Below, piece after piece: positions 12,901 through 42,280 of a stretch of 46,297 bases of DNA. Each line of letters starts with the position of its first letter. Within the stretch, counting starts at the first letter, position 1. This DNA comes from Rhodocyclaceae bacterium. GTDB taxonomy: Bacteria; Pseudomonadota; Gammaproteobacteria; Burkholderiales; Rhodocyclaceae. The stretch covers positions 4,482-50,778 of the forward strand of contig PMIH01000181.1 of NCBI GenBank assembly GCA_003158255.1, read 5' to 3'. Below the pieces are notes generated by a model. That model was not told where the DNA came from, ran no database searches, and was given only the letters and a program-made list of their open reading frames with translations. The translations under genes were made by a program, and so were the position numbers.

Positions 12901-15793
12901 CGAGAAGAACCAGCAGAGCGCGGAGCTGATCGTCGAGGCGCGCGCTGTCGACGCCGCTGGCCGCGCCAGCCACGCCGTGACCAGCGTCTGGCTCGGCGAA
13001 TCGGAAGAGACCTGGTTCGACCAGGACGAATCGGACCGCATCGACGTGCTGCCGGAGAAGAAGCACTACGAGCCGGGCGACACCGCCGTGCTGCAAGTGC
13101 GCATGCCGTTCCGCAACGCCACGGCGCTGGTTACCGTCGAGCGCGAAGGCATCCTTGATCGCTTCGTGGTACCGCTCTCTGGGCGATCGCCGACCGTGCG
13201 CGTGCCGATCAAGCCGAACTACGGACCGAACGTGTTCGTGTCGGTGTTCGTGGTGCGCGGCCGCGTCGGCGGCGTGCAACCGACCGCGCTGGTCGATCTC
13301 GGCAAGCCGGCCTACAAGCTCGGCATCGCCGAACTCACCATCGGCCGCAAGGGCTACGAACTGGGCGTGAAGGTCGACGCGGACAAGCCGGTCTACAAGA
13401 CGCGTGAAGAGGTCACGGCACGCATCCGCGTCACGCTGCCCGACGGCTCGCCGGCCAAGGGCGGCGAGTTCGCGCTCGCCGCCGTCGACGAAGCGTTGCT
13501 GGAACTGGCACGTAACGACTCGTGGCAATTGCTGACACGCATGATGGCACGGCGCGGCCTCGCCGTGGATACCGCCACCGCGCAAGCGCAAGTGGTGGGC
13601 AAGCGCCACTTCGGCCTCAAGGCGCTGCCGGCCGGCGGCGGCGGCGGGCGCCAGCCGACGCGCGAATTGTTCGACACGCTGATCAAGTGGCAGGGCCGCG
13701 TGATGCTCGACGACAACGGCGAGGCGACCGTGAAGATTCCACTCAACGATGCACTGACCACCGTGCGCATCGTCGCCGTCGCCCAGCAGGGCGCTGGGTT
13801 GTTCGGCACCGGCTTCGCGCGCATCCGCACCACCAAGGAGGTGCAGATCTTCGCCGGCCTGCCGCCGGTGGTGCGCGATGGCGACCAGTTGCGCGCCGGC
13901 ATCACGGTGCGCAACATGACGCAGCAGAAGGACAGCTTCACGGTCACACCAACGGCCAACGCGACGGTCGACGGCAAGCGCGTGACGGTGAGCGGACTCG
14001 CCGCACAGACCGTGGCGCTGGAACCCGGCGAGTCGCGCGAACTGGCCTGGCCGCTGGCGGTGCCGACCTCGGCCAACCGACTGGAGTGGCTGGTCAATGC
14101 CCGCGCCGAACATGGTGACGGTCAGGACGCGTTGCGCGCCGCGCAGTCGGTAATACCGGCGCTACCGGTGCGCGTGCAAGCGGCGACGCTTGAGCAGGTC
14201 AACGGCAGCCTCGCCGTGCCGGTGAAATTGCCGCCCGGCGCCGTGCCGGGACGCGGCAGCGTGGACGTGTATCTGAAGCCGACGCTTGGCGCATCGAGCG
14301 ACGGCGTGCGGGCGTATATGGAAGACTATCCGTACATCTGCCTGGAGCAGAAGATCTCCAAGGCGCTCGGCACACGCAGCGCGGGGCGCTGGGAGGACAT
14401 CACCGGCAAGCTTGGCACCTATCTCACCGCCGACGGACTGGCTTCCTACTTCACGAATCCGGAACGCGACAAGGGCTCGGTGCCGCTGACGGCGTACTTG
14501 TTGGCGACCGCGCACGAGAGCGGCAATACGCTGCCCGACGACGCCCGCGAACGCATGCTCGGCGCGCTGGCCGCATTCGTCGAGGGCCGGCTGAAGGAAG
14601 GCGAGCGCATGGCCTGGTCGCCGAAACCCGATCTGCCGATGCGCAAGTTGATCGCCATCGAGGCATTGTCGCGCTACGGCCGCGCCACACCGCAGCATCT
14701 CGCGACGGTGCCGATCACGCCGGGCCTGTGGCCAACCGGTGCAGTGGTCGACTGGCTGAATATCGCCAACCGCATGACGGCGCTACCCGAGCGCGAGCGG
14801 CGATTGACGGAGGCGGAGTCCATCCTGCGCACACGCATGGTCAGCTCCGGCACGCTGACGCAGTTCGCCGACGAATCCGACCACTACTGGTGGTGGCTGA
14901 TGGTCTCGCCCGACGCCACCGCGGCACGCGCCATCAGCGCGTTGATGGACCGCCCCGGTTGGCAGCGCGAGATCCCGCGCCTGGTGCGCGGCGTGATGTC
15001 GCGCCAGCACGAAGGCCGCTGGAACACCACGCCGGCGAACGTCTGGGGCGTGCTGATGCTCGACAAGTTCGCGCGCAAGTACGAAGCCGAGCCTGTGGCC
15101 GGCGAGACCGCCGTCAGCCTGCCTGGCGGCGTGCCACCACGGCTGACTTTCGACTGGAGCCAACTGCCGGCGCAGGAAACCACCAATGCGCAGCTGGCGG
15201 CGACCGGCAAGACCGCCGCGCCGGTGGCAGGAAGTGCGTGGCGCGATGCCGGCGAACGACTGCGCTTCGCCTGGCCTGATAGCGGCGCGGGACAAGTCGC
15301 CATCGAGCACCACGGCACCGGCAAGCCCTGGGCAACCGTGCAGGTGCGCGCCGCACGCGCGCTGACCACACCGCTTTACGCCGGCTTCGTGATCAAGAAG
15401 ACGGTGACGCCGCTGGAGCAGAAGGTGAAGGGCCGCTGGAGCCGCGGTGACGTCGTGCAGGTGCGCATCGACGTCAAGGCGCCGACGCGCTGGACCTGGG
15501 TCGTAATCAACGACCCGGTGCCGGCCGGCGCGACCATCCTCGGCAGCGGCCTCGGCCGCGAGTCGTCGCTGGTCAAGACAGTCGACGGTAGTGAGGGCTG
15601 GGTGAGCTTCGTCGAGCGCGCCTTCGACGGCTACCGCGCCTACTATGAATATTTCGGCGGCAAGACCACGCTGGTGTACAGCTACCGACTCAACAACAGT
15701 GGCCGACTGCAACTACCGCCGACGCGCGTCGAGGCGATGTATGCGCCGGAAAATTTCGGCGAGGCGCCGAACGAGACAATGCAAGTGGATTGA
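9998..15793 (+). CDS. Bacterial alpha-2-macroglobulin family protein
   Basis: 1931 aa with signal peptide; MG-type beta domains (DRPLFRTGETVHMKHIAR; PGDTAVLQVRMPF), AEFALAAVDEALLEL-type segment, thioester motif YPYICLEQKISKALG; followed by PBP1C as is typical. Confidence 0.92.
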   Translation: MSRRILRILPLLLVLPAVAQATELSHFVPLGEAKRVHQVSVNFSDAMRPLGDLAAPDPFTWSCQGSNAVGRGRWVDTQSWALDFDRQLPAGVRCEFRPAAGLRDLAGHTVKAAPVYRFDTGGPAVVSIDNGRYSSGIDEDAVFMVRTNGPIDFASVEANTWCAIEGIGEKVPAKLLSKADKLTLLSRYGGTPNAETLETTAALRCARQLPNDMKVQLHWGKGIRGTTGLATTEAQSREFKVRPQFSVTVSCQRENAHADCVPLSPIELKFTASVRREDVMKIRLVGPMGKKWPAMVRDDDGESEFVDYVQFDSPFPAESRYTLQVPDRIRDEADRPLTNRDRLAAVEIKTSDYPPLLKFAADFGIIERKAGGLLPATLRNLEPVAEGSTDTTVDGSKPGTAATIRLLRLTRDEDILDWLRQSNQARGYDDRRVSLLKSEPRARIALLPKPNGPKPMEVVGIPLGEPGQYVVEAESRLLGERLLDKPEPMYVRTLALNTNLAVHFKKGDESSLVWVTTLDTGKPVGDARISVRTCDGTQVAFGTTGADGAMAIRRRLPEQPRSCKDFYAYFISARANIDGVDDISFATSDWQKGIERWRFKVPYPSLLPDVMTHTVFDRPLFRTGETVHMKHIARRHTDSGFGFVRREVLPDRIAIQLEGSELRFEMPLTWKGGSAETTWTIPAEAKLGRYWVSFLRPGDKAQRVYGDEGEMDGEDAWASPGTYWRGGSFRVADFRLPVMRGEVAVPAAPLIAASSFDVDLRLGYLAGGGASGDKVRLRSEMRPASFTPADDFEGYVFGSPPVDAAAIRDGGWGGQPEATIVDDQRDVALDKAGTRRVAVASLPKWQVPASIVTEMEYADPSGETHAAAGTSTWWPAAALIGIGSDNWASAQDKIKLKLAGLTTAMKPAAGLAYTVRGWYKRSFVHRKRMIGGFYSYDTRNDVVELSELCKGSTDERGRAGCEWAPPKNEKNQQSAELIVEARAVDAAGRASHAVTSVWLGESEETWFDQDESDRIDVLPEKKHYEPGDTAVLQVRMPFRNATALVTVEREGILDRFVVPLSGRSPTVRVPIKPNYGPNVFVSVFVVRGRVGGVQPTALVDLGKPAYKLGIAELTIGRKGYELGVKVDADKPVYKTREEVTARIRVTLPDGSPAKGGEFALAAVDEALLELARNDSWQLLTRMMARRGLAVDTATAQAQVVGKRHFGLKALPAGGGGGRQPTRELFDTLIKWQGRVMLDDNGEATVKIPLNDALTTVRIVAVAQQGAGLFGTGFARIRTTKEVQIFAGLPPVVRDGDQLRAGITVRNMTQQKDSFTVTPTANATVDGKRVTVSGLAAQTVALEPGESRELAWPLAVPTSANRLEWLVNARAEHGDGQDALRAAQSVIPALPVRVQAATLEQVNGSLAVPVKLPPGAVPGRGSVDVYLKPTLGASSDGVRAYMEDYPYICLEQKISKALGTRSAGRWEDITGKLGTYLTADGLASYFTNPERDKGSVPLTAYLLATAHESGNTLPDDARERMLGALAAFVEGRLKEGERMAWSPKPDLPMRKLIAIEALSRYGRATPQHLATVPITPGLWPTGAVVDWLNIANRMTALPERERRLTEAESILRTRMVSSGTLTQFADESDHYWWWLMVSPDATAARAISALMDRPGWQREIPRLVRGVMSRQHEGRWNTTPANVWGVLMLDKFARKYEAEPVAGETAVSLPGGVPPRLTFDWSQLPAQETTNAQLAATGKTAAPVAGSAWRDAGERLRFAWPDSGAGQVAIEHHGTGKPWATVQVRAARALTTPLYAGFVIKKTVTPLEQKVKGRWSRGDVVQVRIDVKAPTRWTWVVINDPVPAGATILGSGLGRESSLVKTVDGSEGWVSFVERAFDGYRAYYEYFGGKTTLVYSYRLNNSGRLQLPPTRVEAMYAPENFGEAPNETMQVD
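15128..15150 (+). repeat. 23-bp interspersed motif copy 3 (inside A2M gene)
   Basis: GGCGTGCCACCACGGCTGACTTT, read in frame as GVPPRLTF. Confidence 0.5.
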
Positions 15794-15794
15794 G

Positions 15795-18044
15795 ATGAGG
15801 TTTGTCGTACTCGCCGCCTATGTCGTATTGACCGTCGCGTCCGCGCACGGCGCGCAGGACGAGCGCGTGCCAAGCTTCGAGCAAGTGCGGGCCGAGCACC
15901 GACCATCCGACTGGATCGTCGCCGACCGTGACGGCGTGCCGCTGCAACGCGTGCGCCGCGAGTTGCGCGTGCGACGACTGGCCTGGATATCGCTCGCGGA
16001 GGTGTCGCCCGCCTTGCCGGCGGCGCTGGTCGCCGCCGAGGACAAGCGCTTCTGGGAACATGGCGGCGTCGACTGGGCTGCCGTCGCCAGTGCGGCTTGG
16101 GATCAGATCGGCATCGGCAACGCGCGCCACAAGCGCGGCGCGTCGACGCTGACCATGCAGCTCGCCGGCATGCTCGACCCCGCGCTGCGGCTGGAATCCG
16201 GCCAACGCCGCGACCTGCGCCAGAAGTGGAACCAGCTCTGGGCCGCACGCGCCATCGAGGCGCAATGGACCAAAGCGCAGATCCTCGAAGCGTATTTGAA
16301 CCTGGTGCCCTGGCGCGGCGAAGCGGTCGGCCTGCCCGCTGCCGCGCGCATCTGGTTCGGCAAATCGCCCGACGGTCTCGACCTGACCGAGAGCGCGCTG
16401 CTGGTGGCGCTGCTGCGCCAGCCGCGCGCGGCACCCACACTGGTCGGCACTCGCGCCTGCACAGTGATCGCCAACCTCGACGCGACCGCCATGCCCGGTG
16501 TGCCGCGGCCCGATTGCCCATCGGTGAAGACGCGTGCCTTGTGGGCGTTCGACGCTACGACGCCGCGTTCGGCGCCGGACGAGATCGGCCTCGCGCCGCA
16601 TGCGGCACGGCGCGCGCTGGCCGAGTGGGGCACGCGGCCGGCGCCACCCCCTGCGCGACCCGGCGGCGAGCCGGTGTTGCGCACGACACTGATGGCCGAC
16701 GTCCAGCGACAAGCGATCGAGAGCGTCGCCACGCACTTGCGCGAACTGTCGCGCCAGAACGTCGAGGACGGCGCGGCCATCGTCATCGACAACGCCAGCG
16801 GCGAGATCGTCGCCTACGTCGGATCGAGCGGCACGCTATCGGCGGCCACCGAGGTGGATGGCGTAATGGCGGGCCGGCAGGCCGGCTCGACACTGAAGCC
16901 CTTCCTCTACGGACTTGCCATCGAGCAGAAGCGGCTCACGGCCGCTTCGCTGCTCAACGACTCGACGCTGCAACTGACGGCCGAAAACGGCGCCTACATT
17001 CCGCAGAACTACGACCACGCCTTCCGCGGCTGGGTGTCGGCCCGCGTCGCGCTGGCCTCCAGCCTGAACATTCCGGCGGTGCGAACCCTGCTGCTGGCCG
17101 GCACCGAGGCCTTCCATCGTCGACTGCTCGACTTCGGTTTCACGACGCTCGTCGAACCGCCGGATCGTTACGGCCTCGCGCTGGCTTTGGGTGGTGCCGA
17201 CGTGCGGCTGATCGATCTCGCCAACGCCTACCGCGCGTTGGCCAACGGCGGCCGCTGGCAGGCGACCGCGCCGCTGACCGGCCAGAGTGAGGCGCGGCCG
17301 GAGCGGCAAGTCATGACGCCTGCCGCCGCTTTCATCGTCAGCGACATGCTGTCCGACCGCGCCGCGCGCGCGCTCACCTTCGGCCTGGAAAACGCGCTGG
17401 CGACGCACGTCTGGTCGGCGGCCAAGACCGGCACCAGCAAGGACATGCGCGACAACTGGTGCGTCGGCTTCACGCGCCGCTACACCGTCGGAACGTGGGT
17501 CGGCAATTTCTCCGGCGCACCGATGTGGGATGTCTCCGGTGTGCAGGGCGCCGCGCCGATCTGGCGCGATCTGATTCACGCCGTCGCCCCGAGTGAACGC
17601 GAAGCGCCGCCGCCGGCACCGAGCGGCGTCAAGGCTATCGAGGTCCGCTTCGAGGGCATCGCCGAACCGCCGCGCCGCGAGTGGTTCCTGCGCGGCACGG
17701 AAACGCCGGTAGTGGCCTTGGCGACGGGTGAGCCAGACGCACTCGCGCCCGCCATCGTCTATCCTGCCGACGGCCTGATCGTCGCCATCGATCCCGACAT
17801 TCCGCTTGACGCCGAGCGACTGGTGTTGCGCATGACGCCGGAGCGCGCCGACCGGCATTGGCGGCTGACGCGGCTCTCGGGCAAGCCCTGCCAGCAGATG
17901 CTGGCGCCCTACGCGACCTGGGCGCCACAGCCGGGCGACTGGCGGTTGGAACTGCTCGATGCCGAGGGCAAGGCGGATGCATCGGTGAAGTTCAGCGTGC
18001 GCGGCGGCGCGCGGCATGCCGATGCCTGCGCAGCCGGCCAGTGA
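15795..18044 (+). CDS. pbpC: Penicillin-binding protein 1C (bifunctional glycosyltransferase/transpeptidase)
   Basis: Start at ATG 15795, directly after the A2M stop. GT51 motifs EDKRFWEHGGVDW, KRGASTLTMQLAGML, RKWNQLWAARAIEAQWTKAQILEAYLNL; TP motifs GSTLKPFLYG, SSLNIP, KTGTS. Confidence 0.93.
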   Translation: MRFVVLAAYVVLTVASAHGAQDERVPSFEQVRAEHRPSDWIVADRDGVPLQRVRRELRVRRLAWISLAEVSPALPAALVAAEDKRFWEHGGVDWAAVASAAWDQIGIGNARHKRGASTLTMQLAGMLDPALRLESGQRRDLRQKWNQLWAARAIEAQWTKAQILEAYLNLVPWRGEAVGLPAAARIWFGKSPDGLDLTESALLVALLRQPRAAPTLVGTRACTVIANLDATAMPGVPRPDCPSVKTRALWAFDATTPRSAPDEIGLAPHAARRALAEWGTRPAPPPARPGGEPVLRTTLMADVQRQAIESVATHLRELSRQNVEDGAAIVIDNASGEIVAYVGSSGTLSAATEVDGVMAGRQAGSTLKPFLYGLAIEQKRLTAASLLNDSTLQLTAENGAYIPQNYDHAFRGWVSARVALASSLNIPAVRTLLLAGTEAFHRRLLDFGFTTLVEPPDRYGLALALGGADVRLIDLANAYRALANGGRWQATAPLTGQSEARPERQVMTPAAAFIVSDMLSDRAARALTFGLENALATHVWSAAKTGTSKDMRDNWCVGFTRRYTVGTWVGNFSGAPMWDVSGVQGAAPIWRDLIHAVAPSEREAPPPAPSGVKAIEVRFEGIAEPPRREWFLRGTETPVVALATGEPDALAPAIVYPADGLIVAIDPDIPLDAERLVLRMTPERADRHWRLTRLSGKPCQQMLAPYATWAPQPGDWRLELLDAEGKADASVKFSVRGGARHADACAAGQ

Positions 18045-20872: not shown

Positions 20873-21002
20873 CCCAGCTCTTGAAACAGTTCCCATTGCG
20901 TGCTAAGAAGAATGGCTCTATTCGCGTTAACTAGTGACAGGCTCGCGGCCTGAGCCTCTGGATTGTCAAACTGGTCGTATTGGTAGCGGCCAGGAGGGCG
21001 AA

Positions 21003-21803
21003 ATGAGGCAACGGGAATTGAAGAAGCTGAAGGCGATGGTGGCGAAGCTCACCTTTGCGCAGCGCCGGGAGCTTACAGATGCATTGGTGGCCGAGGATGG
21101 TGCGGCGGCTTCCGTTGGCATCATTGAGGCCCAGGAGAAGCGGGCGACGTGCCCGCATTGTGGAAGTGAGCGCGTGGTCAGGAACGGCAGCGCCAGTGAC
21201 TTACAGCGCTACAAGTGCCGGGATTGCAGCCGGACGTTCAACGCCCTGACCGGAACACCACTGGCCCGCTTGCGCCAGAAGTCGAAGTGGATCGCGCAGG
21301 CCGAGGTGTTACGTGATGGCATGACCATTACGCAGGCGGCCAAGCGGTTGAAGGTGGCACGGAGCAGAGCATTCCGCTGGCGCCACCGCTTCCTGGCGGT
21401 ACCGAAGACCGTTCAGGCTCAGTCGCTGACAGGGATTGCCGAGGCAGACGAGACCTTCTTCCTGGATTCCCGCGAGGGACAACGTCGCCTTGACCGGAAG
21501 CCGCGCCGACGCGGCGGCAGAGCCGCCAAGCGGGGTCTATCCAAGGAACAAGTTCCGGTGCTGGTCGCTCGGGATCGCTCAGGCGCTACAGCCAACTTCA
21601 TTCTTGTTGCTGACGGCAAGGCGGATCTCGTGGCAGCCCTCAAACCTCTACTGCCCTCAGATACGATCTTGTGCACCGACGGCAGTAGTGTGCTCGCCGC
21701 TGCCGCCAAAGCGATCGGTGTGACCCATCGCCCGGTCAATGTCTCTGCCGGCCGGCGCGTTATTGCCGGCGTCTATCACATCCAGAACGTATGCGCCCGG
21801 TGA
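21003..21803 (+). pseudogene. IS1595-type (ISXO2-like) transposase, 3'-truncated by an IS66 element
   Basis: MRQRELKKLKAMVAKLTFAQRREL...CPHCGSERVVRNGSASDLQRYKCRDCSRTFNALTGTPLARLRQKSKW (zinc ribbon) and ISXO2-like catalytic region GIAEADETFFLDSREGQRR..., LCTDGSSVL; ends abruptly at GVYHIQNVCAR where the IS66-type terminus begins. Confidence 0.8.
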
Positions 21804-22905
21804 ACACAGGGTGGCTCGGAGGTGGGCCAAGCCGGAGTGGATCTCAGACGTGAGCTGAGGTTTGCCAGCGATGCGGCAGCAATTCCTCGATGCGGCTGGC
21901 CGGGTGAGTCGGCAAGCACGTCAAGACGTCCTTGAGGTAGGCGTACGGATCGTGACCGTTGAGCTTGGCCGACTGGATCAAGCTCATGATGGCAGCGGCA
22001 CGTTTCCCCGCACGCAAACTGCCCGCGAAGAGCCAGTTTGATCTGCCCAGGGCAATCGGCCGAATGCGGTTCTCGTTCCAATTGTTGTCGATCGGAATGT
22101 CGCCGTCGTCGAGAAAGCGCATCAGCGCCACCCAGCGGTTCAAACTGTAGTCGAGGGCCTTGGCGATCGGAGACCCCTTGTGAACCAGTTTGCGCTGCGC
22201 AACCATCCAGGCATGGAGTGCATCGGCAATCGGCCGGCTCTCGGATTGCCGTAACTCTCGTCGCTCGTCAGCTGTCAGTTCCGCCGCCCGTTTTTCGATT
22301 TGGTACAAGTGACTGTAGAACGGCAGCGCCGCTTCGGCGATCTGGCTGCGATGATTGGCGTGCAGGTCGAAGAACTTTCGGCGCGAATGCGCCAGGCATC
22401 TGGCGTCGGTGATTCCCTGGGTCAGGAGTTGCTTGTACCCTGAGTAGTCGTCGCAGACGAGGATGCCCTTCCAGTCACCGAGAAAGTCCTTGGCATGCTG
22501 GCCGGCGCGGCTCTCGGCAAAGTCATAGACACAGCCTGGATGGCGTCATAGACGGTCGTGCAGTAGCTCCACACAAACGCCCGTTTGGTCTTGCCCGCCC
22601 CGGGATCCAGCATCGCCACCGGCGTCTCGTCGGCATGGAGCACCTTGCGGGCAAGGAGGATGTCTTTCTGCGCCTCGACCAGCGGATCGAGCGCAACGCC
22701 GGTTTGTCCCACCCACTGTCCCAGGGTCGAGGGCGGAATCGCCAAACCGCTGCGTTCAAAGATGCCCGATTGCCGGTACAGCGGCTGATGATCGGCGTAC
22801 TTCGCGACCATCACCTGCGCCAACAGGCCGGCAGTGGGCAGGCCCTTGTCTATTACCTGAGCGGGCACGGGTGCTTGAATCAGGGTCTCGCACTGGCCGC
22901 TGACT
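21788..22905 (-). mobile_element. IS66-family element remnant (one terminus present, the other missing)
   Basis: Terminus-like GTATGCGCCCGGTGAACACAGGGTGGCTCGG at 21788 followed by an IS66 TnpC-type reading frame on the minus strand; homology fades near 22905 with no second terminus recognised. Confidence 0.75.
21844..22905 (-). pseudogene. IS66-family transposase (TnpC), N-terminally truncated and frameshifted
   Basis: QCETLIQAPVPAQVIDKGLPTAGLLAQVMVAKYADHQPLYRQ...LHADETPVAMLDPGAGKTKRAFVWSYCTTVYDAIQAV / frameshift near 22530 / VYDFAESRAGQHAKDFLGDWKGILVCDDYSGYKQLL...IDNNWNENRIRPIALGRSNWLFAGSLRAGKRAAAIMSLIQSAKLNGHDPYAYLKDVL. Confidence 0.85.
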
Positions 22906-23025
22906 ACCTGCTCCGACTCATACCCCATTGGACAACGCTCCTCACACACATAATTTCCGACAGGCTCGACCTTTGCGAAACAGCCACTTCGCGCAACCGC
23001 TCCTGCTTTTCTGCAGAATTCAATC

Positions 23026-23544
23026 TCACCGCCCGACGACGATTGCGTGCCCCGCCTCCATGTCGAGCTCGGTACGCACATAGAGATCAATTGGAGTGGG
23101 CTCGAACCACAGCTTTGCAGAAATCTCGAATACCGCAAGATTGTGTGAATGAGAAACGGGGTCATGAAAAGGCGTAACGCTTATCGTTTCGGCCAGGATT
23201 CTCGGTTCAAACGTCGCAATTGCGTGCTTGATGCTACTGGCGATCTCGGGCAGATCAAGTTCGCTGTATCGCCGACCTGATATGGGCGCAAGACCGTAAT
23301 TGAGTGTACTGTTCCGGACTCTTGGTGGAAGCGTGAGAGTGCCTCGTGATTCAAACTGCGTCGAATTCAGCAGCCAGGAAAGGTCGCGAATCACTGCATT
23401 GTAATAGTCGATACGACTTATACCCAATTTACGCACTTCGGTGCTACGATCAGGAAATTCGTCGGTAAGACGGTCCAGCAACACTGGCATGAATTGGGCT
23501 TTTCGATCCGCCATCGCAGTCCCGGCCCAGTCAAACTTCGCCAA
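23026..23544 (-). CDS. tssE: T6SS baseplate protein TssE (gp25-like)
   Basis: FMPVLLDRLTDEFPD...GISRIDYYNAVIRDLSWLLNSTQF...SRGTLTLPPRVRNSTLNYGLAPISGRRYSE...; alternative start MADRKAQF at 23514. Confidence 0.87.
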   Translation of the reverse strand: MAKFDWAGTAMADRKAQFMPVLLDRLTDEFPDRSTEVRKLGISRIDYYNAVIRDLSWLLNSTQFESRGTLTLPPRVRNSTLNYGLAPISGRRYSELDLPEIASSIKHAIATFEPRILAETISVTPFHDPVSHSHNLAVFEISAKLWFEPTPIDLYVRTELDMEAGHAIVVGR

Positions 23545-24274: not shown

Positions 24275-25060
24275 CTAAGCACGTTCAGTCACCTCCGGAC
24301 GAGTGCCAAAAAACGTGGTCTCGTCTTTGCACCCGAGCCAAACAGCTAGCGCCGTGGCATTGTCGCCCCATCCGCAGCTGACGGGCCCGCCTTTACCGAA
24401 CAGCCTTTCGAGCCAGTCGCGTGGGTTCTGCGATTGTCGCAGGCAACTTTCCATCAATTGCTCGTCGACCGCATCCCAAAAGCCATCGGAGCACAGTAGG
24501 AACATATCGCCTTCCTCGACCCCGATCGGCTCGGCACTCAACATGTCAGCCGGTATGTCTTCAGCACATACGGACGCGTAGAGACGGTTCCGGTCGGGTG
24601 CGCCACGCACCGATCCTCGGTGTAATCCCGCATCGATTACTGACTGCAAGACACTGTGATCGCGTGTCAGCAGATGAGCGCGTTGATTGCGAAACAGGTA
24701 GATGCGTGAATCGCCAAGTTGCAGCCAAAGAGCTTTCCGCTCCGTCGTATCGACCAGCAAGCACGCCACCGTCGAATCCATCCGATTGGCGCCTGGCTGC
24801 ACACGACGCTCCCGATCAAGGCTGGATCTAGCAAGGCCGAGGCCTCGCTGTAGTACTTCTTTGCTGGTTAAAGGTTGAGCCGAGAATGCGCCAAGCATTT
24901 CCTTTACCACAGCCTTCGCAGCGATATCGCCAAACCCGTGTCCGCCGGCACCGTCGGCGAGAATAAAGCATCCTTTGTCATCATTGGCAAGAAAGCTGGC
25001 GGCATCCTCGTTGACGACCCGATCGCCTCTCTCGGTCAGCGCTGCGACTGCAATCCTCAT
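24275..25060 (-). CDS. pppA: PP2C-type Ser/Thr phosphatase of the T6SS threonine-phosphorylation pathway (PppA-like)
   Basis: GDRVVNEDAASFLANDDKGCFILADGAGGHGFGDIAAKAVV, LQLGDSRIYLFRNQRAHLLTRDHSVLQ, LLCSDGFWDAVD; 4-bp overlap with the FHA gene. Confidence 0.88.
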   Translation of the reverse strand: MRIAVAALTERGDRVVNEDAASFLANDDKGCFILADGAGGHGFGDIAAKAVVKEMLGAFSAQPLTSKEVLQRGLGLARSSLDRERRVQPGANRMDSTVACLLVDTTERKALWLQLGDSRIYLFRNQRAHLLTRDHSVLQSVIDAGLHRGSVRGAPDRNRLYASVCAEDIPADMLSAEPIGVEEGDMFLLCSDGFWDAVDEQLMESCLRQSQNPRDWLERLFGKGGPVSCGWGDNATALAVWLGCKDETTFFGTRPEVTERA

Positions 25061-26829
25061 GTCGGAGAGCCGACCTGCGAACGCCCAGCGATCTCTTCTT
25101 CATAGGCGCGGATAAATGCCTGTGCATAGAAGTCCTGAAAGTCGTTACCCAACGCATCGGCAATACCTTGATAACGCGCACAGTATGCGTCCCAGCACTC
25201 GGAACGACCGTGCGCGCGGCTGATCCTGCTCAATACCCCCTTGGCAGTAGACTCGGCCTCGATCTTGGCTGGGTCGAAGCGGCGAATCATGTCCTCCATG
25301 GCCGATCGCATTCCCGCCACCATACCCATCTGGTGTGACGTCAGATCGGAATAGGCCTCTATCATCGCGTCGACCGGGCCGAGGAAGCCAGGGTACTTAC
25401 GCCCGAAAAAGTACTGAATGGCGATATCCACGTCTGGAGATAGTTTCAATGGGTTATTGTCATTCGGCTGGATGACCGTCATTTCCACTCTAACCTCCCT
25501 CTTTACAGTCGAGCGCGCCCGCATGAGGTCCAGCGTACCGACGATCGAGATACGTAGAAGTGCGCCGATCAGTCGTACGGTGTCCGCATTGAACTCCACC
25601 GACTGCTCAGGTAGTTGGGCCTCTAGTCCCTCTTCAAAGGCACGCCTGAGCTCTGCGCGGTTGCCAGAACATGCAGGGGATCCTGCTGGCACCTGCCGGA
25701 ACGATGATGAAGGCTCCGCCGCAACGTCTTGTGTTCCGGTGCTGTCTGGGTTGCTGGTCGTCAGGGTCACCACGGGTTCGTTTGCGGCAGCCTGTGCCAA
25801 TGATTCCTCACGCGATGGCTCCGAACGCTTTGGAGCCTCGATGGAGTCGGCGCCCCCCCTTGCCGCCTCCATAAGCCGGCCTGATTCGTCTGATTCCAGG
25901 GGGTGCCTCATTTTTGGTACCCTGAAGGCTGCGACAAGCTCTGGGGCAAGCTCCATCGACGGCGCCTCGGTCGATCCAATCTGTAGGGTATCCAGCAACG
26001 CATTGCTGCGAGATTCGTCCTTGAACAGTTCCAGTGGATCGTAAGTATCCTGCTCAGTCACCAAGCCCCCCTCGATACCATGGGGCAGCAACATTGACTC
26101 GCGCCGTTCACCGCTGAAATCCGGATCATCCGCCACCACCGAAAACGGGGAGAGCCTCGGAAGAACCTCGCCTAATCCGACTTCGCTCGGACCGACGGAT
26201 TCCAGTGGAGCAGTCGTCTCCCGTCGCTGTGGCATTTCCCCGAATGGATCAAAGTCTGCGGGAATGATATGCGCCCCCGCTGGGGTGACGGCATCCAGAT
26301 TGTCGTTGGCGTCGCGAAAGAGTTCCTTGGGCGGTGCAACCGGTGTGCCCAACAAATCGTCAAATGGTCCAGGCAAGGAAACTGCCGAGTAATCGGCAGC
26401 CGACGGCATCCGGCCCATCGCAGATGACAGCAACCCGTGGATAGGTAGCGGGTCGGGCGTACGTGCAACCTTTTCACCCGACGTCACCGTCGCCGCGACA
26501 CCCGCCCCCCGTCCGGCGGAAACCCTTATGCGAAGTACATACCCACCTATCTGTAGCAGGTCGCCGTCCACCAACCGGCACTTTGCGCCAGCCGCAACAT
26601 CCTGATCGTTGACGAAAAAGGGATTGCCATCGCTGACATTGACAATGACGTATGCGTCGCCCTCTCGAACGAAACGCCCGTGCTTTCTCGATACTAGGCG
26701 TGCCGGGTCGGGAAGCACCAGCGTATTCTCGGAATCGCGGCCGACAGTTCCGCCTTCGTCTGGAATTGACCCGCGAACGGGTACCACGGGAGGCAGTTCG
26801 TTATAGCTCAGCGCTACTATATCCAACAC
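25057..26829 (-). CDS. T6SS-associated FHA-domain protein (TagH/Fha-like)
   Basis: 590 aa; N-terminal FHA GGTVGRDSENTLVLPDPARLVSRKHGRFVREGDAYVIVNVSDGNPFFVNDQ; C-terminal T6SS-FHA region LIGALLRISIVGTLDLMRARSTVKREVRVEMTVIQPNDNNPLKLSPDVDIAIQYFFG. Confidence 0.9.
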   Translation of the reverse strand: MLDIVALSYNELPPVVPVRGSIPDEGGTVGRDSENTLVLPDPARLVSRKHGRFVREGDAYVIVNVSDGNPFFVNDQDVAAGAKCRLVDGDLLQIGGYVLRIRVSAGRGAGVAATVTSGEKVARTPDPLPIHGLLSSAMGRMPSAADYSAVSLPGPFDDLLGTPVAPPKELFRDANDNLDAVTPAGAHIIPADFDPFGEMPQRRETTAPLESVGPSEVGLGEVLPRLSPFSVVADDPDFSGERRESMLLPHGIEGGLVTEQDTYDPLELFKDESRSNALLDTLQIGSTEAPSMELAPELVAAFRVPKMRHPLESDESGRLMEAARGGADSIEAPKRSEPSREESLAQAAANEPVVTLTTSNPDSTGTQDVAAEPSSSFRQVPAGSPACSGNRAELRRAFEEGLEAQLPEQSVEFNADTVRLIGALLRISIVGTLDLMRARSTVKREVRVEMTVIQPNDNNPLKLSPDVDIAIQYFFGRKYPGFLGPVDAMIEAYSDLTSHQMGMVAGMRSAMEDMIRRFDPAKIEAESTAKGVLSRISRAHGRSECWDAYCARYQGIADALGNDFQDFYAQAFIRAYEEEIAGRSQVGSPT

Positions 26830-26830
26830 C

Positions 26831-27292
26831 TCACCCCCCCCTTTTCTTGCTTACCGCTCGCTTTGCGCGGCGAAACGCCGGATCCCAAGCTGGATGCCCC
26901 ATTTCATAGGGCGTGAGGTCGAAACTGGGATCGCGTTCGAGGATCGCCTCGAAATACCACTCGCAGAGAGTTATCTGACCGCCAACGCAGTGTGAAAAGG
27001 CCAATAGTTTCCTCGCGCGAGTCTGCGCTGGCAGCGACGCGTCCAGCCAGTCGCGATTTGCGGTAAGAAGCCCGATCACCGCCGAGTAGTTGCCTTCGTC
27101 GTAGTAATACGAGGCTCGTGCGAGGACATTCTCAGCGGCCTGATCGGACGGTGGAATCGCCGCCTGGCTCAATCTGGAAGGCTGCGATTTCACCACACCA
27201 TTGGCGCATCCGCCTACCGATAATGCGAATATGCAGGCGAGCAAGCATCGGCACTTTAACAGGGTGAACAGATCAAGATGATATCGATGCAT
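26831..27292 (-). CDS. T6SS-associated lipoprotein, TssQ-like
   Basis: 153 aa; lipobox LSVGGCANG; RASYYYDEGNYSAVIGLL...FSHCVGGQITLCEWYFEAILERDPSFDLTPYEMGHPAWDPAFRRAKR; sits in the T6SS operon. Confidence 0.6.
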   Translation of the reverse strand: MHRYHLDLFTLLKCRCLLACIFALSVGGCANGVVKSQPSRLSQAAIPPSDQAAENVLARASYYYDEGNYSAVIGLLTANRDWLDASLPAQTRARKLLAFSHCVGGQITLCEWYFEAILERDPSFDLTPYEMGHPAWDPAFRRAKRAVSKKRGG

Positions 27293-27301
27293 TTCGTTCC
27301 C

Positions 27302-28183
27302 TCACCGCACATCGCGTCGAATTTCGATCTGTTCGCCCGCGCCGACGTCGACATCGGCGGCAAACGGTTCTCCCCGGCCGCCCGTCAACACAAACGTATG
27401 GACACCAGGGTTGACCTTGATAATCCGAATCGGCGGAGACTCGCCCACGAGCTTGCCGTCGAAAACGATCGATCCGCCCGGACGAACGTTCAGCAGCAAC
27501 TGCGAGCTACCATCCGCAGTACTGGATACCTGAAGCGTCGAGCGAATATATGACGAAGTTGTGGGGGCGTTGGCCGCCGCCGTCAAACTGCCACGATGCT
27601 CGGCAGTCACCTCGTCGAGCACTGGCGACCACCTTCGGTATCCGTGGCCCTCCTCCGTCACTAGGAACCCCGGCACCTCCGCGTACATGCGACGGAACTG
27701 CAGGGCGCACCCGCTATTGTCATGTTCGTCGCACAGCATGAAGCCCCTATACATGTAGGCCACGGCACGATCGCCCGCCAACCTCAAGTTCCCAATAAGT
27801 GCCTGATCGATGATCCACCTTGCCTGACTGGTCTCGTCGTGATCGAAATGGGAGATTGCCCGGACAAGCTTTCTCTCGGACAGCGTCGGACTCAGACGGG
27901 CTTTCAATTCCCGAACTGCGTCGCTGCTGGTCACTGAAATGCTGCGCCCGCCTCCTCCATTCGAGCCGTGCTGACCAAGATCCTGAGAATATCTGAGGTC
28001 CAGGACGGCGGATGACGGCACATCGGAAGCATTCTCGCATTCGCTGATCGCGCGACCGGCCGACTTGACGATCTGAACGCCTTCCTGGGACGACGAATCA
28101 AACAGGATCGAGCACCCGGACACAATCAGCGCCGCAAGGCAACTGCTAAGCGCTCGTACTGAACAAAGTGATTGAGGATTCAT
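27302..28183 (-). CDS. Lipoprotein with TssQ-like domain and C-terminal PEGA-like domain
   Basis: 293 aa; lipobox LIVSGCSIL; FDHDETSQARWIIDQALIGNLRLAGDRAVAYMYRGFMLCDEHDNSGCALQFRRMYAEVPGFLVTEEGHGYRRWSP resembles the downstream TssQ-like protein; C-terminal LNVRPGGSIVFDGKLVGESPPIRIIKVNPGVHTFVL is PEGA-like. Confidence 0.6.
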   Translation of the reverse strand: MNPQSLCSVRALSSCLAALIVSGCSILFDSSSQEGVQIVKSAGRAISECENASDVPSSAVLDLRYSQDLGQHGSNGGGGRSISVTSSDAVRELKARLSPTLSERKLVRAISHFDHDETSQARWIIDQALIGNLRLAGDRAVAYMYRGFMLCDEHDNSGCALQFRRMYAEVPGFLVTEEGHGYRRWSPVLDEVTAEHRGSLTAAANAPTTSSYIRSTLQVSSTADGSSQLLLNVRPGGSIVFDGKLVGESPPIRIIKVNPGVHTFVLTGGRGEPFAADVDVGAGEQIEIRRDVR

Positions 28184-28192
28184 ATTGGAGCT

Positions 28193-30217
28193 CTAGTGCT
28201 GTCCCGTAGGAAACGAAGCAAAGTCATGCGCAACTTCGACGACGCCGGATTCCACAACCGTAATCTCCTTGACGAGACTGGCCCCATTGGGATGGCTGAC
28301 AACAAGCCTATGCCTCCCGACAGGCAGCGAGATGCGCCGTAGTGGCGGCGCCACCCCAAGAGACCGGCCGTCCACCGAAACATTGCCCCAAGGCTTGATC
28401 GAGAGATCCACGGCACCTTTCCTGTGCCCGATCTGTTCGGCGCTGCCGACCTTGCCCTCCACCCTTGACACAGCAGATGTTCTCTCCGCCGACGTGGAAG
28501 GGGCTTGCGGTCCTACTGTGCTCTCCGTCCCTACCGTGACCCCTGCTACGGCATTGGTGGAGCCGACCTCTATCGTGTTCAGTTGCTTCGCTTCCAAGCG
28601 CGCATCGACTCGAACCGCGTCATCGGTCGCTGACGGCGCTTGCTTCCATCCGCTAGCCGCTTGAGATGTTGGCCTGGATTCATGAGTCCCAGAAGCCGGA
28701 GTAAATGTACCGGGCTCGACCGAGGCTGGTGAACCCATTGATGTGGGTAGCGGAGAGTTCGCCACCGCCGGCGGTGACACCGAAGCGCCAGTCTGCAGCG
28801 ATGTAGCCGTTTCGGCAGTCGATGCTGCCACAAGCGCAACCTTTTCTGTGTCGACTGGCTCTGCTATCTGTGACAGTTCTTGTAGTGGGACCTCATTCTT
28901 CAAGGCGCGAGCAGACGATTGAGAGTCGCGCTTCCAATAAGTCAAAAGCAGAAGCAGTCCAAACGCGATCACCACGCCGACCAACAGCCAACGCTTCCGC
29001 GGTCCATCATTGGTTCGCACCGAAGGTTTGGAATGTCCCCGCAAAGAATCATCGGGAAGATGGTCGGTGTCGCGCCTCCTTGGCGTGATCTTCGCTCTCG
29101 GGACTACCTGAATAGCTTCAGCATCTGAGACCCCCTTTGGGCCTTGCGGGGAGTAACCCACTGGATTTGGATCGGTTGGGCGTGGACGGCTGCGGGCCGT
29201 ATCAGCCCGCCCCCGCAAAACGGGATCCATCGTGTCCATCAATGGCTTTCCCGGTAGCAAACCGGCAGACACTATATGATTGACGAGTGGTGCCGAACCG
29301 GATTGATTGATCAGGGCTGCAAATTCGGCGATTGTCTGCGGACGATCCTCCGGCCGAACCGCCAATCCCTTGTCGATGGCCGCAAGGAATTTCGTGGAAA
29401 ATCCGGGAAGATCCTGACTAGTTAACGGAACCACCGGGTCGCGCATGATGCGGGCTACCGACGTGGTAGGCATTCGTCCGGAGATTGCCAGATAGCAGAC
29501 CGCGCAGAGCGCATAGATGTCCGTCCAGGGGCCTTGGGGAGCGTTCGTGACGTCGTCCGAATATTGCTCAATGGGAGCGAATCCTGGCTTCAGGATGATG
29601 GTCGCCAATTGGTCTGGCTCAGCCACGATCCGCCGTGCGGCGCCGAAGTCTAGCAAAATTGGGTTGCCATCACCGAGAACGATAATGTTGTCCGAAGAAA
29701 TGTCCCGGTGGAAGCACTTTTCGCGATGCATCGCCTGTAGCCCACTAAGGATCGGCTTGATAAGACGGTGTAGCCAAGGTTCGTCGCAATGGAAGCCGCT
29801 CTGGCGGAACAATTCGCGCAGCGTGCTACCGCGATAGTAGGGCATCGCCATGTAGGCCGTTCCGTTCTCCTCCCAGAAACGCAGCACGTCGACCAGCGCC
29901 GGATGCTTGAACTGGGCAAGTAATCTGGCTTCGTTAATGAAGCTGCGCATGCCTTTGGCGAACGTTTCGTGATGGCTCGCCGAGCGGGGTTCAACCCCCC
30001 ACCCGGAGTTGCGCACCGCCAATGCCGCCGGCATGTATTCTTTGAGTGCAACCTCGCGGTGCAGCAGGACATCGTCGGCGAGATAGACGATGGCAAAACC
30101 GCCTTCCCCCACCACCCCCTTTATGCGGTAGTCCTGAATCCGCGTATCAACGGGCAAGCCACCAACCGGTGGTGGAATGAATTTGCTCAATGCGTCACTG
30201 GACGATGCCGACACCAT
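28193..30217 (-). CDS. ppkA: T6SS-associated Ser/Thr protein kinase (PpkA-like) with TM helix and C-terminal PEGA-like domain
   Basis: 674 aa; GEGGFAIVYLADD, VALKEYMP, HRDISSDNIIV, LLDFGAARR, KPGFAPIEQY; TM KRWLLVGVVIAFGLLLLLTYW; C-terminal LSIKPWGNVSVDGRSLGVAPPLRRISLPVGRHRLVV. Confidence 0.9.
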   Translation of the reverse strand: MVSASSSDALSKFIPPPVGGLPVDTRIQDYRIKGVVGEGGFAIVYLADDVLLHREVALKEYMPAALAVRNSGWGVEPRSASHHETFAKGMRSFINEARLLAQFKHPALVDVLRFWEENGTAYMAMPYYRGSTLRELFRQSGFHCDEPWLHRLIKPILSGLQAMHREKCFHRDISSDNIIVLGDGNPILLDFGAARRIVAEPDQLATIILKPGFAPIEQYSDDVTNAPQGPWTDIYALCAVCYLAISGRMPTTSVARIMRDPVVPLTSQDLPGFSTKFLAAIDKGLAVRPEDRPQTIAEFAALINQSGSAPLVNHIVSAGLLPGKPLMDTMDPVLRGRADTARSRPRPTDPNPVGYSPQGPKGVSDAEAIQVVPRAKITPRRRDTDHLPDDSLRGHSKPSVRTNDGPRKRWLLVGVVIAFGLLLLLTYWKRDSQSSARALKNEVPLQELSQIAEPVDTEKVALVAASTAETATSLQTGASVSPPAVANSPLPTSMGSPASVEPGTFTPASGTHESRPTSQAASGWKQAPSATDDAVRVDARLEAKQLNTIEVGSTNAVAGVTVGTESTVGPQAPSTSAERTSAVSRVEGKVGSAEQIGHRKGAVDLSIKPWGNVSVDGRSLGVAPPLRRISLPVGRHRLVVSHPNGASLVKEITVVESGVVEVAHDFASFPTGQH

Positions 30218-40942: not shown

Positions 40943-42280
40943 TCAATTCTTCTTGATCGCCCAGCACTCGATCTGGAGGCCAGGCAAGGATCCAGAGATA
41001 TGCAGCGCCAAGCTGCCGCTTTGGGCCAACTCGCGCCACAGCTCGTGACTGGTATCCATCTCGAAGTAGTTGAAGCCGGCGTTATAGGGAAGCTCGCGGG
41101 GGGCGACGGGCAAAGGCCGCAAGCCAATACCCGGCAAGTGCAGGTTCACCAAGTCACGAATTTTTTCTGGCGGCCCGACCTTGATTCTGCCGGGCAATTG
41201 AGCGCGCACCTGTTCCGGCGCCACGTTGGCTGTCGCAGCAAGTACAAAGTTAGCGCTGCTGAATAGATTGCGGTCGTTAACCTGTCCCAAGTGGACTCCG
41301 TAGCTGCGCTCGGAAAGCTCGATGCGGATCGCATTCTGTTCAAGTACGATCGAGAGAGAATGCCGGATGCTTGCGAATACTGGCCGAAACGTACCGGCAA
41401 GATCGTCGTGATCGTATATAGAAAATGCGGGCGAACATCGCGTCTTGCTGGAGTAAGTCGAAAGCTCTCCGGCAATCGCCAAGAACTCGGAGTACATGCG
41501 TTCGGGATGCAATCCGTCCAGCGCCACAAAATGGTCGATCACCGGCTTCCAGCGATTGGCAAGACTCAGCAACAGGAAGTCTGAAACTTCGGTAATGCCA
41601 CCGCTGCCCGGATCGGCCAAGCGTCGCGCCAAAGCGTCGACGCGCTGGTTCAACAAGCCAGCAACTTCCCTGTTCATCCCGGCCAAGACCGACTGGCGCT
41701 TAACGCACAGGCTAGGTGGAATGTAGTCACGGTCGATAGCCAGCACGTTGTTCGCCTGCCGTTCGATGACATGGAGCACTCCAAGTTTTGGCCAGCCTGC
41801 CGGAACCTGACTATCCACCACCAAGCGCAACGACAAGTCGCCAATTTGGATTTCTGCCGCCGGCCCACCGACCGAATTGCAGTCTGCAACCTCCACGATC
41901 TGAGCAAAGTTTCTAGCCGCCACTTCTTCGTTGCGGCCAAATGCCACAGTCGCCATTCCTTGGCGTAACGGTGCAACTGCCAGACAGATCTTGCTGGACC
42001 GCACGTCCTGCGGCACGTCAAGCTCAAGTGGCGGCGACGAGTGGTCTGGAATGGAAAAGGCGGTACCGTCGGGGAAAACGCCCTCCGCGCGACGAATGGC
42101 CACCACGCCCAGCGTTAGCGCATCCTCATCAAGCTCGAACGAGTGAAATCCCCAGTAGTGCGCCGACAACAAGCGGGCGCGATGATGGACAAGAAATTCG
42201 AAATACCGCTCTTCCTGCTGGAAGTGCTGGGGTCGGAGAAACATTCCCTCCGACCAGACAACCTTTTGCTTGAAAGTCAT
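40943..42280 (-). CDS. tssK: T6SS baseplate protein TssK
   Basis: 445 aa; VVWSEGMFLRPQHFQQEERYFEFLVHHRARLLSAHYWGFHSFELDEDAL, typical TssK N-terminus. Confidence 0.95.
   Translation of the reverse strand: MTFKQKVVWSEGMFLRPQHFQQEERYFEFLVHHRARLLSAHYWGFHSFELDEDALTLGVVAIRRAEGVFPDGTAFSIPDHSSPPLELDVPQDVRSSKICLAVAPLRQGMATVAFGRNEEVAARNFAQIVEVADCNSVGGPAAEIQIGDLSLRLVVDSQVPAGWPKLGVLHVIERQANNVLAIDRDYIPPSLCVKRQSVLAGMNREVAGLLNQRVDALARRLADPGSGGITEVSDFLLLSLANRWKPVIDHFVALDGLHPERMYSEFLAIAGELSTYSSKTRCSPAFSIYDHDDLAGTFRPVFASIRHSLSIVLEQNAIRIELSERSYGVHLGQVNDRNLFSSANFVLAATANVAPEQVRAQLPGRIKVGPPEKIRDLVNLHLPGIGLRPLPVAPRELPYNAGFNYFEMDTSHELWRELAQSGSLALHISGSLPGLQIECWAIKKN

What the first reader, a model, noticed from the sequence alone, without database searches (positions are those of the whole stretch)
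26831..30217. Variant envelope arm of the T6SS threonine-phosphorylation module: tandem TssQ-like lipoproteins, with a PEGA-like domain shared by the second lipoprotein and the kinase
Seen in sequence: the 153-aa lipoprotein (26831-27292) and the N-terminal part of the 293-aa lipoprotein (27302-28183) align by eye (RASYYYDEGNYSAVIGLL..FSHCVGGQITLCEWYFEAILERDPSFDLTPYEMGHPAWDP versus RAISHFDHDETSQARWIIDQAL..GFMLCDEHDNSGCALQFRRMYAEVPGFLVTEEGHGYRRWSP), including spaced Cys residues and a GH..W.P end. The longer protein ends in LNVRPGGSIVFDGKLVGESPPIRIIKVNPGVHTFVL, which resembles the predicted extracytoplasmic tail of the neighbouring kinase, LSIKPWGNVSVDGRSLGVAPPLRRISLPVGRHRLVV. Established knowledge: in the P. 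aeruginosa H1-T6SS, PpkA/PppA/Fha1 are controlled by the envelope proteins TagQRST, none of which was recognised in this window. Inference: the lipoproteins and PEGA domains may form an alternative periplasmic sensor feeding PpkA.
Basis: partly seen in the sequence, partly recalled or inferred. Interest (0 to 1): 0.75.

Follow-up and report, generated by a model that had tools for sequence, protein, structure and literature searches.

The report
Lipoprotein tethers for a T6SS kinase
Next to the kinase that switches on a bacterial toxin-injection machine lie two related envelope proteins; comparing nearly 180 gene neighbourhoods shows that this protein family almost always follows a gene whose product ends in a small periplasmic PEGA domain, which suggests a reusable outer-membrane-to-inner-membrane signalling link that the machine borrowed.

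Summary
The 153-aa protein is a TssQ-family lipoprotein (NF038027, 91.9 bits, cut-off 65). The 293-aa lipoprotein has a diverged TssQ-like TPR domain (hhalign 99.4%, E 1.7e-21) and a C-terminal PEGA-like domain that matches the kinase tail (BLASTP E 7e-7). The kinase is a PpkA with one TM and a PEGA tail, inside a near-complete T6SS cluster.

New here: TssQ is not a T6SS family. In 300 Burkholderiales genomes TssQ and T6SS (TssC) co-occur at chance level (24 genomes, 22 expected, p=0.36). TssQ and PEGA co-occur strongly (78 genomes, odds ratio 72, p~1e-41). In 81/97 sampled and 71/79 named loci a same-strand PEGA-ended protein lies immediately upstream of TssQ, either a kinase or a cyclase-like protein. 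T6SS TssQs form one sub-clade. The tandem kinase-PEGA > TssQ'-PEGA' > TssQ > Fha > PppA recurs in all 12 Delftia/Acidovorax-type T6SS loci found. A. citrulli TssW, known to bind PpkA's periplasmic domain, is very probably one of these two proteins.

Most likely mechanism: an outer-membrane TPR lipoprotein docks on the PEGA tail, tethering and activating the kinase, with TssQ'-PEGA' as a bridge. Docking is inferred. A T6SS-specific sensor is only partly supported.

The parts
26831..27292 (-). TssQ-family lipoprotein, 153 aa; lipobox Cys29, TPR-like domain residues 50-146 (26855-27145), conserved Cys102/Cys110
   Evidence: NF038027 91.9 bits, over cut-off; all-helical TPR-like AF2 model, mean pLDDT 87.0, Foldseek hits to TPR domains, none below E 0.001
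27302..28183 (-). LIP2: 293-aa lipoprotein (lipobox LIVSG|C), TssQ-like domain plus C-terminal PEGA-like domain
   Evidence: counterparts in L055 and L158-L169
27602..27880 (-). TssQ-like TPR domain of LIP2 (residues 102-194)
   Evidence: NF038027 E 1.4e-4; hhalign 99.4%; AF2 helices, block pLDDT mostly 92-97
27311..27508 (-). PEGA-like domain of LIP2 (residues 226-291)
   Evidence: BLASTP to kinase tail E 7e-7; seven-strand AF2 model, pLDDT about 74-91; Pfam 14.9 bits, below cut-off
28193..30217 (-). PpkA-type Ser/Thr kinase, 674 aa; HRD Asp172, DFG Asp190
   Evidence: Pfam Pkinase E 3e-25; motifs
28928..28999 (-). single transmembrane segment of the kinase (residues 407-430)
   Evidence: hydropathy
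28232..28384 (-). PEGA domain of the kinase's predicted periplasmic tail (residues 612-662)
   Evidence: PF08308 20.3 bits, 24 bits over cut-off in genome search
25057..26829 (-). Fha / TagH, FHA-domain scaffold
   Evidence: TIGR03354 225 bits; PF20232, PF00498
24275..25060 (-). PppA, PP2C phosphatase
   Evidence: PF13672
23531..24220 (-). TagF
   Evidence: PF09867, TIGR03373
23026..23544 (-). TssE
   Evidence: TIGR03357
30265..32994 (-). TssH/ClpV
   Evidence: TIGR03345
32982..34019 (-). TssG
   Evidence: TIGR03347
34012..35880 (-). TssF
   Evidence: TIGR03359
35902..39519 (-). TssM
   Evidence: TIGR03348
39519..40844 (-). TssL (long form)
   Evidence: TIGR03349/03350
40943..42280 (-). TssK
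   Evidence: TIGR03353
42277..42837 (-). TssJ lipoprotein
   Evidence: TIGR03352
43195..44175 (+). TssA (148.8 bits, just under the 160.85 cut-off)
   Evidence: TIGR03363
44233..46273 (+). TssB and TssC sheath genes
   Evidence: TIGR03358, TIGR03355

Best explanation
The locus encodes a T6SS version of a wider Burkholderiales module in which an outer-membrane TPR lipoprotein (TssQ) docks on the periplasmic PEGA tail of a single-pass inner-membrane signalling enzyme. Here the enzyme is PpkA. Docking would anchor and cluster PpkA at the T6SS membrane complex and raise its activity, so that it phosphorylates Fha and the apparatus assembles; PppA reverses this. The 293-aa protein carries both halves of the pair (TssQ'-PEGA'). 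It most likely works as a bridge: its TssQ' domain docks on the kinase PEGA and its PEGA' docks on the 153-aa TssQ. Shown here: domains, gene order, recurrence, PEGA-TssQ co-occurrence, membership of the window's TssQ in a T6SS sub-clade. Shown elsewhere for the presumed relative TssW: outer-membrane localisation, binding to PpkA and TssM and more weakly to TssJ, and rescue of the mutant's Hcp secretion by extra PpkA. Inferred: that PEGA is the docking surface, and the bridge order.
For: PEGA-TssQ pairing: the gene immediately upstream of TssQ on the same strand encodes a PEGA-ended protein in 81/97 sampled and 71/79 named-genome loci. Genome co-occurrence of TssQ with PEGA has odds ratio 72, p 1.5e-41, against 1.15, p 0.36 for TssQ with TssC. 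In cyclase-type operons the PEGA sits on the cyclase-like protein and the kinase checked is C-tail anchored, so the PEGA rather than the kinase is what TssQ follows. TssQ distances track PEGA distances better than kinase or cyclase distances (partial r 0.41-0.47 against 0.16-0.26). T6SS TssQs form one clade (97/93 and 98/92). Tandem architecture in 12 named loci plus a congener. TssW data in PMC12607579: outer membrane, binds the periplasmic domain of PpkA, and PpkA overexpression restores Hcp secretion in the tssW mutant.
Against: No direct PEGA-TssQ contact has been shown; complexes could not be modelled. A. citrulli AAC00-1 itself was not available, so TssW's identity with TssQ rests on position and on congeners. 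In several Burkholderia-type T6SS clusters TssQ is not adjacent to the PEGA kinase (7-8 kb away, on the other side of the cluster), although both are present. The TssW mutant still keeps part of its T6SS activity, so the tether is not essential there. In Acidovorax and Delftia the second protein has a signal peptide but no lipobox, so its membrane anchoring is not conserved. PEGA scores of the window proteins are near or below the Pfam cut-off.
Confidence: 0.6

Rival explanations
1. Signal-responsive sensor analogous to TagQRST: the lipoproteins detect envelope damage or a ligand and then switch PpkA on.
For: Same place in the pathway as TagQRST and Serratia RtkS, which binds PpkA's periplasmic domain and needs DsbA for stability (PMC6082577); the TssQ TPR carries two near-invariant cysteines that could be redox sensitive; PEGA-TssQ also serves cyclase-like and kinase outputs outside T6SS.
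Against: No signal is known; A. citrulli is described as having constitutive T6SS activity and TssW as a positioning anchor (PMC12607579).
Confidence: 0.22
2. LIP2 is a competitor or buffer: its PEGA' occupies TssQ and limits kinase docking, setting the threshold for firing.
For: LIP2 carries the same PEGA module that TssQ is presumed to recognise; A. citrulli T6SS output depends on the PpkA/TssW/Fha balance (PMC12607579).
Against: Would not explain why LIP2 also keeps its own TssQ-like domain, including the C-x7-C pair, in both lineages.
Confidence: 0.12
3. The lipoproteins are structural accessories of the TssJ-TssM membrane complex and their effect on PpkA is indirect.
For: TssW binds TssM strongly and TssJ weakly (PMC12607579); in some Burkholderia-type clusters TssQ lies beside TssJ.
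Against: Most TssQ genes are in genomes with no TssC, nearly always beside a kinase or cyclase rather than TssJ/TssM.
Confidence: 0.1

Closest known systems
TssW-PpkA-Fha axis of Acidovorax citrulli (PMC12607579)
   Same: Outer-membrane protein encoded between ppkA and fha; single-pass PpkA with periplasmic C-terminus; Fha and PppA next to it. Congeners (L163, L164) have Hcp, a PEGA-tailed PpkA with HRD/DFG Asp at 162/180 (paper: 161/179, same spacing of 18), LIP2, TssQ, Fha, PppA, TssJ in order.
   Different: The paper mentions neither PEGA nor the TssQ family and describes one gene between ppkA and fha; the congeners and the window have two, and the window's second one is a lipoprotein.
NCBIfam TssQ family T6SS-associated lipoprotein (NF038027)
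   Same: The 153-aa protein is a member by score.
   Different: The family name implies T6SS; here it follows PEGA proteins and not T6SS. Its relation to the Bacteroidota T6SS protein also called TssQ was not tested.
TagQRST of P. aeruginosa H1-T6SS
   Same: Envelope input to PpkA, including an outer-membrane lipoprotein (TagQ).
   Different: No TagR/S/T equivalents recognised here; different domains (TPR and PEGA).
RtkS of Serratia marcescens (PMC6082577)
   Same: Periplasmic protein that binds PpkA's periplasmic domain and supports Fha phosphorylation.
   Different: Described as unrelated to known signalling proteins and encoded after fha-pppA; its sequence was not compared here.
LpoP of P. 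aeruginosa (6w5q)
   Same: TPR-like globular domain of an outer-membrane lipoprotein that acts on an inner-membrane enzyme (function from general knowledge); among the Foldseek matches.
   Different: The enzyme is a penicillin-binding protein; the match is at the generic TPR-fold level (E 0.21).

Membership tests
TssQ family (NF038027) | whole-protein score above curated cut-off 65 | tested here: met
   153-aa protein 91.9 bits
TssQ family (NF038027) | same cut-off for the 293-aa protein | tested here: not met
   22.3 bits; it has a TssQ-like domain but is not filed as a member
TssQ family (NF038027) | lipoprotein signal with lipobox Cys | tested here: met
   read from sequence: 153 aa ...SVGG|C, 293 aa ...LIVSG|C; C29 near-invariant in the family
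TssQ family (NF038027) | association with T6SS | tested here: not met
   true for the window, but not for the family: 24 of 93 TssQ genomes have TssC, as expected by chance
PEGA domain (PF08308) | curated cut-off 20.8 bits, kinase tail | tested here: inconclusive
   20.3 bits in hmmscan, 24 bits in genome search
PEGA domain (PF08308) | curated cut-off, LIP2 tail | tested here: not met
   14.9 bits; called PEGA-like because of E 7e-7 to the kinase tail, the all-strand AF2 model and the Delftia homologue at 35.6 bits
PpkA T6SS kinase | kinase domain with HRD/DFG, single TM, encoded with Fha and PppA in a T6SS cluster | tested here: met
TssW (A. citrulli) | gene between ppkA and fha | tested here: met
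TssW (A. citrulli) | sequence homology with A. citrulli TssW | tested here: inconclusive
   A. citrulli not held; in congeners both genes in that position have TssQ domains; [quoted passage not shown]
TssW (A. citrulli) | outer-membrane location and binding to PpkA periplasmic domain | not testable with these tools
   needs experiments
TagQRST | TagQ/R/S/T genes by the T6SS cluster | tested here: not met
   none among the annotated T6SS-cluster genes; the only FGE-sulfatase gene is on contig C110. TagQ, TagS and TagT were not searched separately, and the assembly is 85% complete

The most novel reading that the evidence does not exclude
TssQ and PEGA are a general trans-envelope signalling pair of Burkholderiales: an outer-membrane TPR lipoprotein controls inner-membrane Ser/Thr kinases and class III cyclase-like proteins through a periplasmic PEGA tail. 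T6SS recruited this pair to control PpkA, and some lineages then extended it with a TssQ-PEGA bridging protein.
Probability: 0.6. Interest if true: 0.75.

Novelty: new variant of a known kind. Interest (0 to 1): 0.62.

Why it matters
How species without TagQRST feed envelope information into PpkA is an open question. The finding gives the input a concrete, testable interface (the PEGA tail), puts the single reported case (TssW) into a named family, and suggests that the 'T6SS-associated' label on TssQ is misleading. If right, dozens of uncharacterised kinase and cyclase loci in Burkholderiales share one outer-membrane input module, and the T6SS is one client.

Tried and rejected
Pairwise BLASTP of the two lipoproteins was not significant for the domain, so profiles were used. 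A recent duplication of the neighbouring TssQ as the origin of LIP2 is disfavoured: LIP2s fall outside the starred T6SS TssQ clade. Their long branches leave a single LIP2 origin possible, not shown (p-AU 0.45). T6SS specificity of TssQ was rejected. The TagQRST equivalence found no support. Papers with PEGA plus T6SS: none in the held library; the 11 papers that mention a PEGA domain are, by title and abstract, about other topics. Direct identification of A. citrulli TssW failed: it is absent from the 80 loci returned, and no locus close to Paracidovorax appeared in the Delftia-family sample. The first genome-contig query alignment was too diverse. The 50-row alignment with full-length TssQ misaligned GHPxWG with the PEGA PWG motif and was replaced by trimmed rows. 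Foldseek on both models gave generic TPR matches and weak beta-domain matches only.
Full report
WHAT IS THERE. The three ORFs are as stated: kinase 28193-30217, LIP2 27302-28183, TssQ 26831-27292, all on the minus strand with 9-bp gaps, followed by Fha (25057-26829), PppA, TagF and TssE, and preceded by ClpV, TssG, TssF, TssM, TssL, TssK and TssJ; TssA, TssB and TssC lie on the other strand. The window ends at a contig end, so Hcp/VgrG are not seen. The genome is an 85%-complete assembly of 3.45 Mb in 325 contigs. It is placed in the same order as Delftia (G168 = Delftia tsuruhatensis, since L158 is 100% identical), i.e. Burkholderiales.

DOMAINS. The 153-aa protein is a TssQ-family lipoprotein by curated score with a TPR-like all-helical model (mean pLDDT 87.0); 45 of 61 related sequences hit the Pfam TPR_2 model. 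LIP2 has an N-terminal lipobox and a disordered stretch, a TssQ-like helical domain and a C-terminal seven-stranded PEGA-like domain. Profile-profile comparison secures the TssQ relation, and BLASTP the PEGA relation to the kinase tail. The kinase has intact HRD and DFG motifs and one TM at residues 407-430, which places the PEGA tail in the periplasm (topology inferred, as shown for A. citrulli PpkA by PhoA fusions in PMC12607579).

TSSQ IS A PEGA COMPANION. NF038027 is found in 93 of 300 Burkholderiales genomes but in only 3 others of 274 genomes drawn across the class. TssC is found in 72 of the same 300, and both in 24, against 22.3 expected (Fisher p 0.36). PEGA (PF08308) is found in 92, and both TssQ and PEGA in 78 (odds ratio 72, p 1.5e-41). 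Genomes are not independent observations, so the p-value overstates the case; the contrast between the two tests does not depend on that alone. Gene order agrees. Three common architectures were seen: FHA<PppA<KIN-PEGA>TssQ>, KIN-PEGA>TssQ>, and cyclase-like-PEGA>TssQ>KIN>. In 81 of 97 sampled and 71 of 79 named loci the gene directly upstream of TssQ on the same strand encodes a PEGA-ended protein (the PEGA profile was grown from the window's own kinase tail). In a cyclase-type locus checked for topology (L100) the kinase is C-tail anchored, while the PEGA is on the cyclase-like protein, after its single TM. A mirror-tree comparison over 39 cyclase-type loci gives the highest correlation for TssQ-PEGA, which persists after controlling for kinase or cyclase distances; this is suggestive only, without a significance test.

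T6SS SUB-CLADE AND THE TANDEM. T6SS-linked TssQs, including the window's, fall in one supported clade (21 rows 97/93; 32 rows 98/92), together with some kinase-linked copies for which no T6SS genes were seen in the stretch examined and, in the second tree, the second domains of the fused TssQs. Within T6SS clusters three layouts were seen: KIN-PEGA > TssQ'-PEGA' > TssQ > Fha > PppA (window, congener L055, and 12 Delftia/Acidovorax/Curvibacter-type loci L158-L169); KIN-PEGA > KIN-PEGA > TssQ > Fha > PppA (Casimicrobiaceae-type and others, e.g. L134, L152, L204, L215); and TssQ > Fha with the PEGA kinase at the other end of the cluster (Burkholderia-type, L155-L157). In all three the cluster usually keeps at least one PEGA protein. 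LIP2s lie outside the T6SS TssQ clade; one or two origins cannot be told apart.

LINK TO KNOWN BIOLOGY. A. [quoted passage not shown] Extra PpkA restores Hcp secretion but not position (PMC12607579). The congeners L163/L164 show Hcp, PpkA-PEGA, LIP2, TssQ, Fha, PppA, TssJ. TssW is therefore very probably one of the two TssQ-domain proteins, more likely the lipoprotein TssQ: the Acidovorax LIP2 has no lipobox, and the paper reports tssW also in lineages (Casimicrobium, Collimonas) whose relatives here have TssQ but no LIP2. In Serratia a different periplasmic protein, RtkS, plays a similar part (PMC6082577).

MECHANISM. I infer that TssQ recognises PEGA. The doubled unit in the window would then give a chain: outer membrane - TssQ - PEGA'(LIP2) - TssQ'(LIP2) - PEGA(kinase) - inner membrane, tethering PpkA near the TssJ-TssM complex and promoting Fha phosphorylation. 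The pairing rule and the presence of the parts are shown; the contacts, their order, and any signal are not. LIP2's own membrane anchor in this genus (lipobox, absent in Acidovorax) would make the tether double-anchored.

LIMITS. PEGA scores of the window proteins are marginal by Pfam alone. My PEGA and TssQ profiles were iterated on sets that include the window sequences. TagQ, TagS and TagT were not searched one by one in the incomplete genome. A. citrulli itself was not available.

Noticed in passing
L100:3974-6513, L120, L151 and others: Operons of a class III adenylate/guanylate-cyclase-like protein with one TM and a PEGA tail, then TssQ, then a kinase that (in L100) ends in a C-terminal membrane anchor; about 40 loci in the sample.
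   Followed up: partly
L066, L071, L139, L149, L154: Two TssQ domains fused in one ORF in one family (f22), another doubling of the domain.
   Followed up: no
L134, L145, L152, L170, L177, L182, L187, L192, L204, L215, L230: T6SS-type loci with two tandem PEGA-tailed kinases directly before TssQ-Fha(-PppA).
   Followed up: no
window 20934-23177: IS1595 transposase and IS66-like transposase pieces (read from sequence, not tested) abut the end of TssE, so sequence downstream of tssE has been rearranged.
   Followed up: no
L158-L169: Acidovorax/Delftia-type LIP2 proteins have a signal peptide and extra conserved cysteines but no lipobox, unlike the window's LIP2.
   Followed up: partly
window 9998-15793 and 15645-18044: A 1931-aa ORF without an NCBIfam match beside PBP1C; the arrangement resembles the alpha-2-macroglobulin/PbpC pair (from memory, not tested).
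   Followed up: no
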